Source: Rickettsia hoogstraalii
Lineage (GTDB): Bacteria > Pseudomonadota > Alphaproteobacteria > Rickettsiales > Rickettsiaceae
NCBI RefSeq assembly: GCF_000825685.1
Contig: NZ_CCXM01000001.1
Coordinates: 496,001 to 560,000, forward strand
Direction: 5' to 3'
Length of the DNA: 64,000 nt
The translations under genes and the position numbers were made by a program. Positions 5,105-44,731 of this stretch are shown here, piece after piece; within the stretch, counting starts at the first letter, position 1; every line of letters begins with the position of its first letter. The notes beneath the pieces were generated by a model. The model saw only the letters and a list, made by a program, of their open reading frames with translations. It had not been told where the DNA came from and ran no database searches.

Positions 5105-5278
5105 TTAAGTCATTATTCGGCTTTCCAACTCTCCTAAACGTTGCTCGATTCTCTCTATATCTTCTTTTGTGACAGGATTTTTTAATAAAAATGCAATTTC
5201 ATCTTTTAGCATGTTTATCTCTTTTTCAGTAGAATCTAATACTATATCGTAAATGCTTTTTTTGCCTTGATTTGACAC
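5105..5278 (-). CDS. Small hypothetical protein, 57 residues, GTG start
   Basis: A short reading frame begins with GTG immediately after an in-frame TGA. It has a good ribosome-binding site, GGGAG, a few bases upstream. The product starts MSNQGKKSIYDIVLD and continues as a highly charged, predicted helical peptide with LKDEIAFLLKNP and EDIERIEQRLGELE. I do not recognise it. Its composition and good start suggest a real gene or the conserved end of one, possibly an antitoxin-like or coiled-coil protein. It lies between addA and the IS110-type element, on the opposite strand. Confidence 0.45.
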   Translation of the reverse strand: MSNQGKKSIYDIVLDSTEKEINMLKDEIAFLLKNPVTKEDIERIEQRLGELESRIMT

Positions 5279-5313
5279 TCAAATGCTCCCAAACTTAAAT
5301 TGCTCAAGTTTCA

Positions 5314-5341
5314 ACCACCGAAGATTTTAACTTCGGGTGGT
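5314..5341. other. Hairpin ACCACC/GGTGGT left of the IS element
   Basis: ACCACCGAAG and CTTCGGGTGGT pair with one bulge around a 7-base loop. It resembles in outline the ACCACCAA/TTGGTGGT hairpin that closes the RNA locus at 43.4-43.6 kb. It may be the separated 3' end of the related RNA on this element's right side; that is conjecture. Confidence 0.35.
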
Positions 5342-5421
5342 CTATGTATTTAATTATAATTAATGAACCGTGTCGCGGTGTGTTACTCCTTACTTCATTT
5401 GGTTCCGAACAATCAATAGAG

Positions 5422-5470
5422 TAAGGGGTTATTCACGATCAACCATTAATATCAAGTGAATAACCCCTTA
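5422..5470. promoter_or_regulatory. Perfect 15-bp hairpin upstream of the IS110 transposase
   Basis: TAAGGGGTTATTCAC (5422-5436) and GTGAATAACCCCTTA (5456-5470) are exact inverted repeats with a 19-base loop, about 28 bases before the transposase ATG. In the IS110 family the non-coding region next to the transposase encodes the guide (bridge) RNA, so this could be a stem of such an RNA. It could also control translation. Neither is shown. Confidence 0.5.
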
Positions 5471-5498
5471 GCTCGTACATAGGACAGGAGAGAAAAAC

Positions 5499-6457
5499 AT
5501 GACAAAGCATATTTTTATAGGTATCGATGTATCTGAAGATACTTTAGACGTTTGGTTACACCCATTGAATAAATATAAAGTTTTTGATAATGATCAAAAA
5601 GGAATTAAGGAGCTAGTTGAATATATAGCGGATTATAATATAGCTAAAATTGTAATTGAAGTACTGGTGGACTTGAATATAAAGCAGCAAAAACCTTACA
5701 AAAAACAGGCTATTTGGTGTCAGTAGTTAATCCTTATTTTACATCAGCATTTAGAACTATGAGAGGTAAGTTTACAAAAACTGATACTATTGATGCACAA
5801 ATGTTAGCATTATTTGTAGAAAAAATTAACCCTGAGTCTAGAAAAGTAGCGAATGAGATAGAAAAAGAATTAAAAGAACTTACATCTAGACGTAACCAAT
5901 TAATTACTATGATAGTATCTGAACGCAATCGCTTACGTAGAGTTACTAATCAAAAAATAATTAATAGTATAAATAATGTTATTGATTTACTTAATAGCCA
6001 AAAGGAAGAAGTAGAAAAGCTTATATTACATCTTATTTTAAATCTAGAAAGTTACAAAGAAATATATAATTTACTTATTACTATCCCAGGTATTGGCTCT
6101 ATTATAGCAATAACCTTAATTACAGAATTACCAGAGCTTGGTAATTTAAATTGTAAACAAATTGCTTCTTTAGTAGGGGTAGCACCTCACTGTAAGGAAA
6201 GTGGGAAAACACGATTTAAAGCAAAAACTAAAAGTGGTAGAAAAACAGTACGGGCAGCATTATATATGGCAGCTGTTACGTCTGTAAGATGTAATTCCGC
6301 CGTTAAACCTTTTTATAAAAGACTTGTGGAAAAAGGAAAAGCCAAAAAATTAGCTCTTACTGCTGTAATGCGAAAGATAATAATTATTATCAATAATATT
6401 GTTAAAAACAAACGGCCTTGGCAGGAACAATATAAACAAATTATCTTGACTTCTTAA
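5499..6457 (+). pseudogene. IS110-family transposase, frameshifted
   Basis: The start reads HIFIGIDVSEDTLDVW, the RuvC-like DEDD start of IS110 transposases. The middle has the typical KTDTIDAQMLALF. The C-terminal Tnp part has LLITIPGIGSIIAITLI, LVGVAPHCKESG and GRKTVRAALYMAA, followed by the expected catalytic-serine region. The frame breaks near 5660-5665. In one frame translation runs into VLVDLNIKQQ and stops at 5726. In the other it continues GGLEYKAAKTLQKTGYLVSVVNP, so one base has been lost in the codons after IVIE. The intact protein would be about 319 residues. A good ribosome-binding site, GGACAGGAGAG, precedes the ATG. Confidence 0.9.
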
Positions 6458-6459
6458 AC

Positions 6460-6626
6460 ACAATCACCGGGGAAGTAAGAAAACCATCAACGATAGCCAT
6501 AATAGCCTTTAAGCTCTGTACATAGCTATTATCTCCCCGACCGTGATGAAGTCGAATTTATACGGCTGATAATACCGCTTAGGAGTGAGGCTTTGAAATC
6601 CCAGAATAACGTTACCGCTATTCTTG
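6460..6626 (-). ncRNA. Candidate structured RNA beside the IS110 transposase
   Basis: Read on the minus strand, this region resembles the RNA locus at 43388-43600. The core at 6498-6555 matches 43466-43520 at roughly 50 of 58 positions, including CGGTCGGGGAGAT and CAGAGCTTAA. A stem around the conserved loop is ATAATAGC/GCTATTAT here and ATTAGGT/ACCTAGT there, so the sequence differs while pairing is kept. Both loci have a sigma70-like promoter about 25 bases before the similar 5' part. It may be the IS guide RNA or a resident RNA gene next to which the IS landed. Ends are approximate. Confidence 0.5.
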
Positions 6627-6632
6627 CAAGAG

Positions 6633-6660
6633 ATTCTACTCAATTTTTTTTAAATGTCAA
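6633..6660 (-). promoter_or_regulatory. Sigma70-like promoter for the minus-strand RNA
   Basis: On the minus strand: TTGACA, a 16-base spacer, then TAGAAT. It points into the structured RNA region. The -10 box lies about 25 bases from the segment that aligns with the recA-upstream locus, which has TTGACT-16-TAAAAT at nearly the same distance. Confidence 0.6.
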
Positions 6661-6694
6661 TTAGACCTTGTGTTTAAGAGCAGATAACGTAAGC

Positions 6695-34292: not shown

Positions 34293-34299
34293 GGTATAC

Positions 34300-34464
34300 A
34301 TGACCGCTTTGGCCGTTACTTAAAATCCTTCAAAGACCTTTATGTAAAGGTGGACTTCATATATCTAAACTGAATTAGTATTAGACAGGGACGATGTCCT
34401 AAAAGTTAGTGGTAGTCCTAGGTTAATATTAAGCTCACGAACCAAGCAGCCAAGAGCTAATATA
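34300..34464 (-). ncRNA. Candidate 6S RNA downstream of zapA
   Basis: The 165 bases directly after the zapA stop contain no coding frame. In many proteobacteria the 6S RNA gene (ssrS) lies exactly there. The minus strand reads GGTTCGTGAGC, then CCTAGGACTACC, hairpins GGAC-ATC-GTCC and CCTTTACATAAAGG, and a later GAAGTCCACC that can pair back with GGACT. I could not align it to a 6S consensus, so this is a positional and structural guess. Confidence 0.4.
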
Positions 34465-41824: not shown

Positions 41825-43324
41825 ATGGCACCTGTATTAAATATAAATTTTAAATGCGTTATGCCTATATTTGGAAATGAAATGGTAAGTAGTTTGCCCG
41901 GTAATGTAACATATATAATTCATAAACTCGGTAATACTATACTTTCATCGGTATATAAGACGAATACTGAAGGGAAGTTCGAGGAAGGTTACTTAGTGAA
42001 CAATACAGATTGTAACTGGGGAAATATTGCAGAATCTTTTTCAAAAAATCCTGATAATTTTGCAGTATTACACAAGCAATGCATAACAAAAAGTGGCTTA
42101 GACATTCCAATAAATAACATTTTTACCGATGCAGAAAATAACCCACATATACTTTTACAGCAAGCTATAACACCTCATCAAAACGGTACAGCTAACATTT
42201 TTGATCAGGCTTATAAAGTAACACTTGATTATATGTTCTCTCAAGGCAATATTACCGAAACTAACGGAGCTGATTTCTTAGGTTTAAATGAATGTACTAA
42301 GGAAGAAGCTATGAGCGTTTTACAAAAGTACAGTACCTATAAGAAACAACTAACATCTATCGAAACGCTTACTAATACTCTTCAGGATACTCTAAACCAT
42401 TTAGGCATATCTCAGGATAATGCTCAAGAAGCAGGGGTAAAAATTTTTAATGTATTGAATATACCCGTCAAATTCACTACTGATAATCTTAAGATTATTC
42501 TAGAGGCTTTCAAAATAACTTTGGACGATATATCTCCTACAGAAGTAGGTAAAAATATTTTAGATCTACTAAGTAAACCTTTCACTGAGGCAACCACTTC
42601 CACTACAGAAAGAACTAACGATGATACAAATGACGGTGGATATAGCGGTGCTTATATAGCTGGAGTAGCATTAGGAACATTAGCTCTAGGCACTATCTTA
42701 GGATATGGCATTAAATATGTATGGGATAGGCATAAGGGAAAAAATATAAAAGATAAAAATTTAGAGTTAGAGGGTGAAAACATAAAGTTAGAGGGTGAAA
42801 ACATAAAGTTACAAAAGGATAATATAAATCTTAGCGCACTAATTGAATTTCAAGCTATATTAGATGAAATTATAGAAATTGGAAATTTAACAGATATACT
42901 TGCAATACTAAGCAAAACTAATCAAGATACGATAAATTTACATGGTCAAGATTATGATATTTCTCTATTAAAATCAAAAATACAAGGTCTAGATAAAGCA
43001 ATTATAAAGTTAAATTCTGTCTCTAACATATGTACTAATATAAATTCTTTAGGTAACACATTACATAAAATATGTGACCTTCTTAATGGAAAGGATACTT
43101 TTATTGCTATTAAATCCTTTGCAAATTTAATAAAAGAATCGAGGGAAACGGATATTAAATCCGAAGAATACAAAAACTGTCTTGAGAAAATATTCGAGAC
43201 GCTACTTGGAATTGATAAAACCTCAAGCGGAGAATATACTTATATTCCAGAAGAAGAGTTACAAAATCATGAAATGCCATTATTAGCCGATGTATTATCT
43301 AGCTCTTCAGGTATAGAAATATAG
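41825..43324 (+). CDS. Hypothetical membrane protein with short Glu/Lys repeat, 499 residues
   Basis: No known family. The N-terminal 265 residues contain no recognisable enzyme motif. A single hydrophobic span (about 276-291, GAYIAGVALGTLALGTILGYG) is followed by a basic YVWDRHKGKNIKDKN. A short tandem repeat follows, ENIKLEG-ENIKLQK. The C-terminal half is helical and ends ADVLSSSSGIEI. It has strong transcription and translation signals. A large N-terminal domain, one span and a coiled-coil could mean a surface- or periplasm-exposed protein, but no signal peptide is visible at the N-terminus. It may be Rickettsia-specific. Confidence 0.6.
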   Translation: MAPVLNINFKCVMPIFGNEMVSSLPGNVTYIIHKLGNTILSSVYKTNTEGKFEEGYLVNNTDCNWGNIAESFSKNPDNFAVLHKQCITKSGLDIPINNIFTDAENNPHILLQQAITPHQNGTANIFDQAYKVTLDYMFSQGNITETNGADFLGLNECTKEEAMSVLQKYSTYKKQLTSIETLTNTLQDTLNHLGISQDNAQEAGVKIFNVLNIPVKFTTDNLKIILEAFKITLDDISPTEVGKNILDLLSKPFTEATTSTTERTNDDTNDGGYSGAYIAGVALGTLALGTILGYGIKYVWDRHKGKNIKDKNLELEGENIKLEGENIKLQKDNINLSALIEFQAILDEIIEIGNLTDILAILSKTNQDTINLHGQDYDISLLKSKIQGLDKAIIKLNSVSNICTNINSLGNTLHKICDLLNGKDTFIAIKSFANLIKESRETDIKSEEYKNCLEKIFETLLGIDKTSSGEYTYIPEEELQNHEMPLLADVLSSSSGIEI

Positions 43325-43353: not shown

Positions 43354-43381
43354 TTGACTTTTTGAAAGTTATATATAAAAT
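43354..43381 (+). promoter_or_regulatory. Sigma70-like promoter for the RNA locus upstream of recA
   Basis: TTGACT, a 16-base spacer and TAAAAT. It faces a non-coding region that folds well. The arrangement copies the TTGACA-16-TAGAAT at 6633-6660 with the same distance to the similar sequence. Confidence 0.65.
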
Positions 43382-43387
43382 GATACT

Positions 43388-43600
43388 TGGATTAGCAAAG
43401 TGCTATTTCGGGGTGTCGAAACCTCTGCCAAAAGTGAGAACATTTCTTACAAAACCGATGTAATCCTCGACTTCACGGTCGGGGAGATATTAGGTATGTC
43501 CAGAGCTTAAGGGTTACTATAAGCTTAAAACCTAGTGTGCTGACTTTTGGCAGTTTTCGACCTCCCCGACCACCAAAAATTATGCTCATTGGTGGTTAAA
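43388..43600 (+). ncRNA. Candidate structured RNA, paralogue of the IS110-flanking RNA
   Basis: No frame is open here. A long outer stem joins GGGGTGTCGAAACCTCTGCC (from 43410) to GGCAGTTTTCGACCTCCCC (to 43567), about 24 pairs with small bulges. Inside are a hairpin TCCTCGAC/GTCGGGGA and a stem ATTAGGT/ACCTAGT around the loop ATGTCCAGAGCTTAA. A perfect 10-bp alternative pairing, GGTCGGGGAG (43477) with CTCCCCGACC (43562), competes with both. A hairpin CCACCAA/TTGGTGG (43570-43595) closes it. Homology to 6460-6626 and a promoter support a real RNA of unknown class. 6S or riboswitch identity is not shown. Confidence 0.55.
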
Positions 43601-43699
43601 AAACTTAAAATATTTCAAATTAAGCCTAGGCTGTGTAAAGGAAAATCATTTTTTTCTCAAGCTTATATTTTAATTGATAAGTTTATAATATAGAAATTT

Positions 43700-44731
43700 A
43701 TGTCAAATACAGATAAGGAAAAAGCCATTGCCGCAGCACTCGCACAAATCGAAAAAAGCTACGGTAAAGGTTCGGTAATGAAACTAGGGCAGCGTCCGAA
43801 TGTTGATATAGAAGCCGTATCAACCGGCTCACTTGGGCTTGATATAGCTCTTGGGATAGGAGGTGTTCCTAAAGGTAGAATCATTGAAATTTTCGGTCCT
43901 GAAAGCTCAGGTAAAACCACTTTAACTTTACATTTAATTGCAGAAGCACAGAAAAAGGGCGGTACATGTGCCTTTATTGATGCCGAGCATGCCCTTGACC
44001 CTGCTTATGCTAAAAAATTAGGCGTAAATATTGATGAGCTTATTATTTCACAACCAGATACAGGTGAACAAGCTCTAGAAATTGCCGATACGTTAATTCG
44101 TTCCGGCGGTATTGATATGATAATAATAGATAGTGTTGCGGCTTTAGTACCAAAATCAGAGATTGAGGGCGAGATGGGGGATGCCCAAATGGCTTCTCAA
44201 GCAAGATTAATGAGCCAGGCTTTACGTAAACTTACCGCATCAATTAATCGTACCAATTGTATTACTGTTTTCATCAACCAAATCAGAATGAAAATAGGTG
44301 TGATGTTCGGCAGTCCTGAAACTACGACAGGCGGTAATGCCTTAAAATTCTACGCTTCTGTTAGAATCGATATAAGAAGAATCGGCTCCATTAAAGATAA
44401 AGAAGAAGTGATAGGCAGCCAAACTAAAGTAAAAGTAGTTAAAAACAAAGTTTCCCCTCCGTTTAAAACTGCAGATTTTGATATAATGTACGGTTCAGGT
44501 ATTTCAAAAGAAGGCGAGATAATCGACCTTGGAGTTAAGCTTGATATTGTTGAGAAATCCGGCTCTTGGTTTTCCTACAATAACGTACGCATTGGACAAG
44601 GACGTGAAAACGTCAAACAATATTTAAAAGAACATCCACAAATTTCCAATGAAATTGAGAAAATCATACGCGAAAAATCGTCAAAAATTACTAATATAAA
44701 TCTTGATCAAACGGAGGAAGAAAATGATTGA
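43700..44731 (+). CDS. recA: Recombinase RecA
   Basis: RecA promotes strand exchange and repair, forming filaments on single-stranded DNA. The Walker A is GPESSGKTT (about 68-76). MAW-type [20 protein letters not shown] start, [19 protein letters not shown] and [22 protein letters not shown] follow. At 343 residues the length is normal. The start ATG has no good ribosome-binding site nearby; TATAAT stands very close (43683). The stop overlaps the fabG start by eight bases, coupling recombination and lipid genes. I see no LexA-type site. Confidence 0.98.

What the first reader, a model, noticed from the sequence alone, without database searches (positions are those of the whole stretch)
6460..6660. 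Second copy of the recA-upstream RNA on the flank of an IS110 transposase
The minus strand right of the transposase aligns with the recA-upstream locus: about 50 of 58 bases in the core, weaker similarity on both sides, and a TTGACA-16-TAGAAT promoter at the matching distance. A stem differs in sequence but keeps pairing (ATAATAGC/GCTATTAT against ATTAGGT/ACCTAGT) around a conserved loop. IS110-family elements carry guide (bridge/seek) RNAs in non-coding ends, yet this RNA would run toward the transposase on the opposite strand. Either it is an unusual IS guide RNA with an orphan near recA, or a resident RNA family that this IS targets.
Basis: partly seen in the sequence, partly recalled or inferred. 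Interest (0 to 1): 0.85.

Follow-up and report, generated by a model that had tools for sequence, protein, structure and literature searches.

The report
Leader-RNA gene split by an IS110
A transposon has landed inside one copy of a multicopy, intricately folded RNA that usually sits in front of mobile or accessory genes; the RNA belongs to the host's genes and not to the transposon, and the standard RNA catalogue does not recognise the copies tested.

Summary
The similarity is real: window 6499-6555(-) matches the recA-upstream copy at 48 of 57 bases (E 5e-10). It is not an IS guide RNA. It is the 5' part of a resident structured-RNA gene, interrupted by an IS110 element (5343-6468) that reads antisense to it. 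The RNA's 3' hairpin (5312-5342) and a 57-aa ORF (5105-5278) continue on the other side. Related genomes show uninterrupted sites, and the same IS110 at the same point. A longer relative of this IS encodes a bridge-RNA-like loop that fits the site (TGGTGGTC|GGGG); the window's copy has lost the left guide arm and has a broken transposase. The RNA occurs in 22 of 23 genomes of the genus; models and a core pattern built from it find it in other Rickettsiales and many Alphaproteobacteria. It has a promoter, strong covariation, a candidate pseudoknot and two competing pairings, and usually precedes an ORF (serine recombinases, ICE-type regulators, one Zorya, orphan small genes). Rfam's sRNA-Xcc1 (RF02221) is a distant relative; in that branch one strand also pairs with the next gene's ribosome-binding region. 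Best reading: a mobile leader-RNA module exploited by IS110. That it regulates the next gene is inferred.

The parts
6633..6660 (-). Promoter of the RNA gene (TTGACA, 16 nt, TAGAAT)
   Evidence: Located; counterparts in the other copies
6469..6626 (-). 5' part of the structured RNA, up to CTTACTTCCCC; the 5' end is an estimate from the promoter
   Evidence: Model R2 hit on window 6461-6602; junction by comparison with uninterrupted sites
6499..6555 (-). Core that matches the recA-upstream copy
5343..6468 (+). IS110 element, about 1126 bp, antisense to the RNA; one G at the right junction is ambiguous
   Evidence: Pfam Transposase_20 and DEDD_Tnp_IS110; ends
5499..6457 (+). Transposase gene, broken: open in two pieces in different frames (second piece 5714-6457)
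   Evidence: the twin copy shows the same two pieces
5343..5498 (+). Shortened guide-RNA (bridge) region of the IS; the left target-guide arm seen in G006 is absent
   Evidence: Comparison with G006 copies; fold of 5370-5498 z -2.8
5312..5342 (-). 3' hairpin of the RNA (GACCACC..GGTGGTTG), beyond the IS
5105..5278 (-). Small ORF behind the RNA, 57 aa from GTG, preceded by GGGAG; type A family
   Evidence: relatives
43354..43381 (+). Promoter of the recA-upstream RNA copy (TTGACT, 16 nt, TAAAAT)
43410..43612 (+). Full-length RNA copy upstream of recA (model R2 matches 43410-43575; 3' hairpin follows)
   Evidence: (z -8.1)
43700..44731 (+). recA, which follows this copy only in this genome

Best explanation
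The minus strand at 6469-6660 is the promoter and 5' part of a resident structured-RNA gene whose RNA is the 5' leader of a small ORF, now at 5105-5278. An IS110 element inserted antisense into the RNA gene at its conserved CTCCCC/GACCACC junction and split it. Shown by sequence: the split anatomy, the IS ends, uninterrupted sites, recurrent insertion at that point, and a matching loop in a relative's guide region. Inferred: that this guide chose the site; that the second IS copy in this genome arose by recombination between RNA copies (both copies share the same broken transposase, shortened guide and RNA flanks); and that the RNA controls the gene behind it. The likely mode is a switch: a 10-nt element (GGUCGGGGAG) can pair with an upstream or a downstream partner, and the two pairings exclude each other.
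For: Uninterrupted sites in L044, L046, L048. Junctions: RNA 5' part abuts the IS in 5 of 6 readable right ends, RNA 3' part clearly in 6 of 8 left ends and partly in a seventh. Guide region of the G006 copy folds with z -7.9 and carries TGGTGGTC and CCCC on the two sides of a loop. RNA in 22 of 23 genus genomes. Covariation on 32 copies: 82.6% of cells paired against 70.2% shuffled, 221 double-changed cells against 78, 0 of 500; variable P1 strand 106 of 114 cells, 0 of 20000 shuffles (19 of 21 copies). Long-range partner 288 of 300 cells, 0 of 5000 shuffles. ORF with ribosome site within 170 nt behind the RNA at 70 of at most 86 sites outside the genus, against 11 in the opposite direction.
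Against: No transcript data for this genome. Some copies have no ORF directly behind them, among them the recA copy: only 47 of 113 rows have an ORF of 50 aa or more starting within 60 nt (rows include partial and overlapping copies). One of the full IS copies in G006 sits in another sequence. No strand of the RNA was found to pair with the ribosome-binding region in this branch (37 of 300 shuffles as high). Both competing pairings are largely made of conserved letters, so double changes in them are few. The guide match was seen by eye and not tested against chance.
Confidence: 0.75

Rival explanations
1. The RNA is a guide (bridge or seek) RNA of the IS, at its right end and running toward the transposase; the recA copy is an orphan guide.
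For: IS110-type elements carry guide RNAs in non-coding ends (PMC11208160, passages), and the RNA abuts the transposase gene here.
Against: The RNA lies outside the IS ends and is found uninterrupted. 22 of 23 genus genomes have the RNA, only 7 of 23 have an IS match. The IS has a guide-like region upstream of its transposase.
Confidence: 0.03
2. The RNA is an independent trans-acting sRNA, and the genes behind it are neighbours by chance or by hitch-hiking.
For: sRNA-Xcc1 was cloned and seen on Northern blots as an 88-nt RNA (PMC2996969, passages). Two near-identical R. conorii RNAs, one called a riboswitch and one a trans-acting sRNA, are reported (PMC5105140, passages). Copies without an ORF exist.
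Against: Directional excess of ORFs with a ribosome site behind the RNA, 70 against 11, and near-constant spacing to the start codon within sub-branches.
Confidence: 0.2
3. The copies are a passive dispersed repeat (MITE-like or palindromic element) without function.
For: Multicopy, dispersed, some copies partial or broken by other repeats.
Against: Compensatory changes across many genera, a conserved promoter and a fixed place before start codons are not expected of a passive repeat.
Confidence: 0.06

Closest known systems
sRNA-Xcc1 (Rfam RF02221)
   Same: Shared core fold: closing helix GGUCGGGGAG/CUCCCCGACC, hairpin with the AUGUCCA-type loop. Model R1 hits 3 of 6 RF02221 loci given to it. 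Also upstream of accessory genes: symE in Xanthomonas integron cassettes (PMC12444791, passages).
   Different: Window-type copies score under the family's cut-off (27.6 bits against 53; none of 18 loci reached it). They have a 5' domain that the 87-position model lacks, and no pairing to the ribosome-binding region.
IS110 bridge RNA / seekRNA
   Same: The IS here carries a guide-like region upstream of its transposase, as IS110 elements do (PMC11208160, passages).
   Different: That region is part of the IS; the RNA of the finding is outside the IS and is its target.
C4 antisense RNA of P1-type phages (RF01695; recalled)
   Same: From memory: an RNA at the start of an antirepressor transcript that pairs with the ribosome-binding region of a gene behind it. 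The RF02221 branch looks alike in this respect.
   Different: No match to RF01695 in the window. The pairing was not found in the window's own branch.
R. conorii Rc_sR3 and Rc_sR33
   Same: Two RNAs of 234 and 294 nt, 90% identical, one in the leader of a short hypothetical ORF, no Rfam match reported (PMC5105140, passages).
   Different: Identity with this RNA not established: genomes here are unnamed, and no handle that I compared has hits at the published positions.
REP elements as IS621 targets
   Same: An IS110-type element that lands in a multicopy sequence of its host (PMC11208160, passages; PMC1525189, listing).
   Different: Here the target is a structured-RNA gene with promoter and ORF.

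Membership tests
sRNA-Xcc1, RF02221 | Score at or above the curated cut-off of 53 bits | tested here: not met
   27.6 bits for the recA copy; no match for the window's IS-site copy even at E 10; none of 18 loci from the pattern scan at the cut-off
sRNA-Xcc1, RF02221 | Common descent shown by shared hits of independent models | tested here: met
   R1 hits 3 of the 6 RF02221 loci given to it, at 37.4, 29.7 and 19.5 bits; those three are themselves under the RF02221 cut-off
sRNA-Xcc1, RF02221 | Strand complementary to the ribosome-binding region of the next gene (found here for that branch, not part of Rfam's definition) | tested here: not met
   Rickettsiales branch 37 of 300 shuffles as high; alphaproteobacterial branch 65 of 200 with Watson-Crick pairs, though 0 of 200 with G-U allowed (6.93 against 6.52); RF02221 branch 0 of 200
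IS110 bridge RNA / seekRNA | Encoded inside the IS | tested here: not met
   RNA outside 5343-6468 and present without the IS
IS110 group (the element at 5343-6468) | DEDD and Transposase_20 domains, guide-like non-coding region upstream of the transposase | tested here: met
   Pfam, second piece of the transposase; guide-like fold in the G006 relative; shortened in the window
C4 antisense RNA | Match to RF01695 | tested here: not met
   No match in the window at the gathering score
Riboswitch | Ligand-dependent change of structure and expression | not testable with these tools
   Only the anatomy (competing pairings, candidate pseudoknot) was seen
Type III toxin-antitoxin | Tandem RNA repeats before a ToxN-like gene | tested here: inconclusive
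   No toxin family in Pfam or NCBIfam for 8 representative ORF products; repeats not searched with a dedicated tool

The most novel reading that the evidence does not exclude
A long leader RNA with its own promoter, a pseudoknot and two mutually exclusive pairings is a general expression switch carried by horizontally moving genes (recombinases, antirepressors, symE, ICE regulators, Zorya, restriction) in Pseudomonadota and a few other phyla. sRNA-Xcc1 is one branch, in which the switch is an anti-ribosome-site strand. IS110 uses the RNA's conserved DNA as a multicopy landing site.
Probability: 0.45. Interest if true: 0.85.

Novelty: new variant of a known kind. Interest (0 to 1): 0.68.

Why it matters
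If right, an RNA filed as an 88-nt trans-acting sRNA is the 3' half of a larger and more widespread leader element that rides with mobile and defence genes. That gives a testable rule for how newly arrived genes are held silent or switched on. It also adds a structured-RNA gene to the multicopy sequences that IS110-type guides select as targets.

Tried and rejected
A peptide inside the RNA (ATG TCC AGA GCT TAA behind GGGGAG) was considered. It is not kept outside Rickettsia, where the motif often reads ATACAACAGG or ATAAAACAGG, so I take it as a loop motif. The 6S RNA at 34297-34455 is separate. Type III toxin-antitoxin was considered and not supported. Pairing of the RNA's P2 3' strand with the ribosome-binding region or with the next 400 nt was tested; it was found only in the RF02221 branch. 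An AlphaFold model of the type B/C protein has mean pLDDT 67; the structure library was never searched because the machine was busy. Mapping to published R. conorii sRNAs was not possible. Literature searched: sRNA-Xcc1, Rickettsia sRNAs, ncRNA and leader wording, IS110 targets. No listed title or passage that I saw describes this long form; the library holds open-licence PMC papers only, and most listed papers were not opened.

Rows dropped before counts; 19 of 21 copies (L059 and L061 lack the 5' strand); 6 of the 10 RF02221 loci fetched. onward: L177, nearly identical to L176, left out of the alignment; 18 of 80 loci; 86 of 96 sites with a recognisable 5' P1 strand, minus any within 200 nt of a locus end; before that five loci were set aside as chance hits (L191, L246, L251 seen; L207 and L236 judged by organism only, their sequence was in the cut part) and four as Rickettsiales repeats (L196, L204, L233, L256). 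Searches show the first 25 of 51 and 48 families; 32 chosen copies; six of 25 RF02221 loci left out (L332, L340, L341, L349, L351, L353, cut by contig ends); 17 of the other 19 had a callable start; 35 of 41 loci. One search lists only part of its matches. Four IS remnants (G007, G009, G010, own 207226) were not examined at their flanks.

Full report
Where this is. The window is 64 kb of a 1.48 Mb genome (G000:C1:496001-560000). No name is given. I infer the genus Rickettsia: relatives of the small proteins described below are nearly all named Rickettsia where named (exceptions: one 'Pseudomonadota bacterium', one 'Janthinobacterium lividum' MAG), and several lie on contigs with the same length as contigs of same-genus handles.

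Window 6499-6555 minus aligns with 43467-43520 plus at 48 of 57 bases, E 5e-10 in a 64 kb search. Both have a TTGAC-16-TARAAT promoter. The differing stem keeps its pairing. A covariance model made without this copy finds it at 49.8 bits, E 5.9e-10.

The IS interrupts the RNA. A second copy of the IS in the same genome is identical over window 5291-6524. That run overshoots the real ends because both flanks are RNA sequence too. In L044 (G010), L046 (G009) and L048 (G007) the RNA is uninterrupted; L046, for example, reads ..TTTTCTTACTCCCCCAACCACCAAGAG..CTTCGGTGGTTG. The window reads ..TTTTCTTACTTCCCC, then the IS, then GACCACCCGAAG..CTTCGGTGGTTG. The IS is therefore 5343-6468, with one ambiguous G. 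Beyond it the minus strand continues with the RNA's 3' hairpin (5312-5342), a GGGAG and a 57-aa ORF (5105-5278).

The same point is hit repeatedly. One search read the junctions of 8 IS copies or remnants in four genomes. A right end was found in 6; RNA 5' sequence abuts it in 5, in one of them (own 735 kb copy) only a truncated RNA. A left end was found in all 8; RNA 3' sequence abuts it clearly in 6 and partly in a seventh (G001). The exception on both sides is the copy at G006:533731. In this genome the IS is present at 2 places in full; 7 of 23 genus genomes have an IS match at all.

The guide fits, seen by eye. In bridge RNAs the left target guide pairs with the bottom strand left of the site and the right target guide with the top strand right of it (PMC11208160, passages). 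In the G006 copies the region upstream of the transposase is longer than in the window. It folds with z -7.9 into three hairpins, the middle one being GTAAGGAGGTAAC[GATGGTGGTCAG]..[CGTGCCCCG]GTGTGTTACTCCTTAC; the predicted fold pairs some of the bracketed bases with each other. Read with the transposase, the target is TGGTGGTC|GGGGAG. One bracket holds TGGTGGTC, the other CCCC. I ran no chance test on this. The window's copy and its twin lack the left arm and have a broken transposase, and one search found no long transposase frame in the three G006 copies either. Recombination between RNA copies is therefore my preferred origin of the twin; this is inference.

What the RNA is. With the recA-upstream copy as DNA query it is found in 22 of 23 genus genomes. 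Within 10 kb upstream of recA on the same strand it lies in 14 of 23, but abuts recA only here (my comparison). Of 113 BLAST rows, 47 have an ORF of 50 aa or more starting from 10 nt before to 60 nt after the RNA's end; rows include partial copies and overlapping loci. The products are of a ~60-aa kind (type A, and similar shorter ones) and a ~130-170-aa kind (types B and C, alignable in their second half). Eight representatives have no convincing Pfam or NCBIfam match. 62 database relatives of types B and C were found. Together with relatives from other Rickettsiales they match the N-terminal part of serine recombinases by profile comparison, 93.8%, E 1.8e-7. In L161 and L178 such a small gene directly precedes a serine recombinase gene.

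Distribution. Model R1 (16 Rickettsia copies) hits 70 of 261 Rickettsiales genomes at E 1e-3 or better. Model R2 hits 23 of 398 Pseudomonadota genomes, this one included, at E 1e-6 under stricter filters. Rfam at its gathering scores reports no match for the RNA in the window nor in 18 of those 80 loci.

Structure. On 32 copies, 82.6% of cells pair against 70.2% in shuffles; 221 cells are changed on both sides against 78; the covariation score is 0.401 against 0.184; 0 of 500 shuffles reach these values. The variable part of helix P1 is 98.4% paired with double changes at five of six pairs, and 106 of 114 cells pair in 19 Rickettsia-type copies, 0 of 20000 shuffles as high. P2 differs in almost every copy, and a complementary run of 6-11 nt is found in each of 30 (mean 7.7; shuffled mean 6.2, highest of 300 shuffles 6.9). 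A loop-to-downstream pairing suggests a pseudoknot: six of six pairs show double changes, but only 61.7% of its cells pair, in an alignment that is not in register there. The element GGUCGGGGAG can pair upstream (91.2% of cells) or downstream (98.1%; 288 of 300 cells, 0 of 5000 shuffles as high). The two exclude each other, and the downstream partner overlaps P1. The upstream figure (263 of 300) is inflated, since the partner was picked as the best one. The recA copy alone folds with z -8.1.

What lies behind it outside the genus. At 70 of at most 86 sites an ORF of 45 aa or more with a ribosome-site-like motif starts within 170 nt downstream, against 11 in the opposite direction (simple ORF rule, no gene annotation). 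Among these 70 products Pfam gives RovC_DNA-bd 15, Resolvase 3, Recombinase 3, HTH_3 3, BamE 2, N_methyl 2 and single matches that include ParA/MipZ-type, TraM, DUF2726 and ResIII (first 25 of 51 families). PADLOC gives one ZorA (E 3.5e-132) and one type IIG restriction enzyme; its 10 weak Cas11e labels (best E 9e-5) I do not trust. Many products have no match.

Relation to sRNA-Xcc1. RF02221 gives the recA copy 27.6 bits, E 0.008, against a cut-off of 53. R1 independently hits 3 of 6 RF02221 loci given to it; these three are under the RF02221 cut-off as well. RF02221 hits 49 of 398 Pseudomonadota genomes at E 1e-5, 39 over the cut-off. In 19 usable loci strands that can form P2 or P1 lie upstream of the modelled part (runs of 5-10 nt in the 17 loci, without a shuffled control). 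The next genes look to me like Bro-N, KilA-N and Rha antirepressors and SymE; I did not scan them. There the RNA's 3' strand is also complementary to the ribosome-binding region: mean run 6.29 against 4.77, 0 of 200 shuffles as high, n 17, and only in the first 60 nt downstream (0 of 100, n 19). In the alphaproteobacterial set this is absent with Watson-Crick pairs (65 of 200, n 58; 81 of 100). With G-U pairs allowed it gave 0 of 200 for a small difference (6.93 against 6.52), which I cannot explain. In the Rickettsiales set it is absent (37 of 300, n 35; 6 of 100).

How it likely works. In the sRNA-Xcc1 branch the anatomy fits a translational switch, in which the P2 3' strand covers either the P2 5' strand or the ribosome-binding site. 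In the window's branch the two-way 10-nt element suggests a switch too, but its output is unknown. Here the IS separates the promoter and most of the RNA from the ORF, so this copy should be out of action; that is inference.

Noticed in passing
window 34297-34455 (-): 6S RNA (RF00013, 55.7 bits), unrelated to this RNA.
   Followed up: partly
window 6452-6462 and 6669-6679: An 11-bp inverted repeat (TCTTAAACACA / TGTGTTTAAGA) brackets the RNA's 5' part; one arm lies in the IS end, the other upstream of the RNA promoter (read).
   Followed up: no
G000:C1:733570-733700 (L028 3570-3700): Another RNA copy starts at the very end of a gene that ends ..LPPEVKFN (279-aa ORF, hemF-like by my reading) and is broken off by a palindromic repeat.
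   Followed up: partly
G000:C1:1442076-1442253 (+): A further RNA copy in this genome, found by R1 and R2 only.
   Followed up: no
G006:C1:533731-534874: A full IS copy that is not in an RNA gene; its flanks share AACGCCCT and GAC with the RNA target.
   Followed up: partly
L155 (G027): RNA directly in front of a ZorA/ZorB-like pair; ZorA match E 3.5e-132 comes from one of the 70 products.
   Followed up: partly
L152, L153: SIR2-like and TIR-like genes lie on the other side of the RNA in these distant Rickettsiales loci (my reading; not scanned).
   Followed up: no
L164 (G066): The 141-aa gene behind the RNA occurs twice in tandem, nearly identical.
   Followed up: no
alphaproteobacterial loci, e.g. 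L187, L188, L195, L247, L248, L260: One recurrent gene (..MRVPVELDPDVDD..) about 60-68 nt behind the RNA, a likely source of the 15 RovC_DNA-bd matches.
   Followed up: partly
window 41825-43324 (+): A DUF5460 gene precedes the recA-upstream RNA; similar coding ends precede the RNA in several other genomes (my reading).
   Followed up: no
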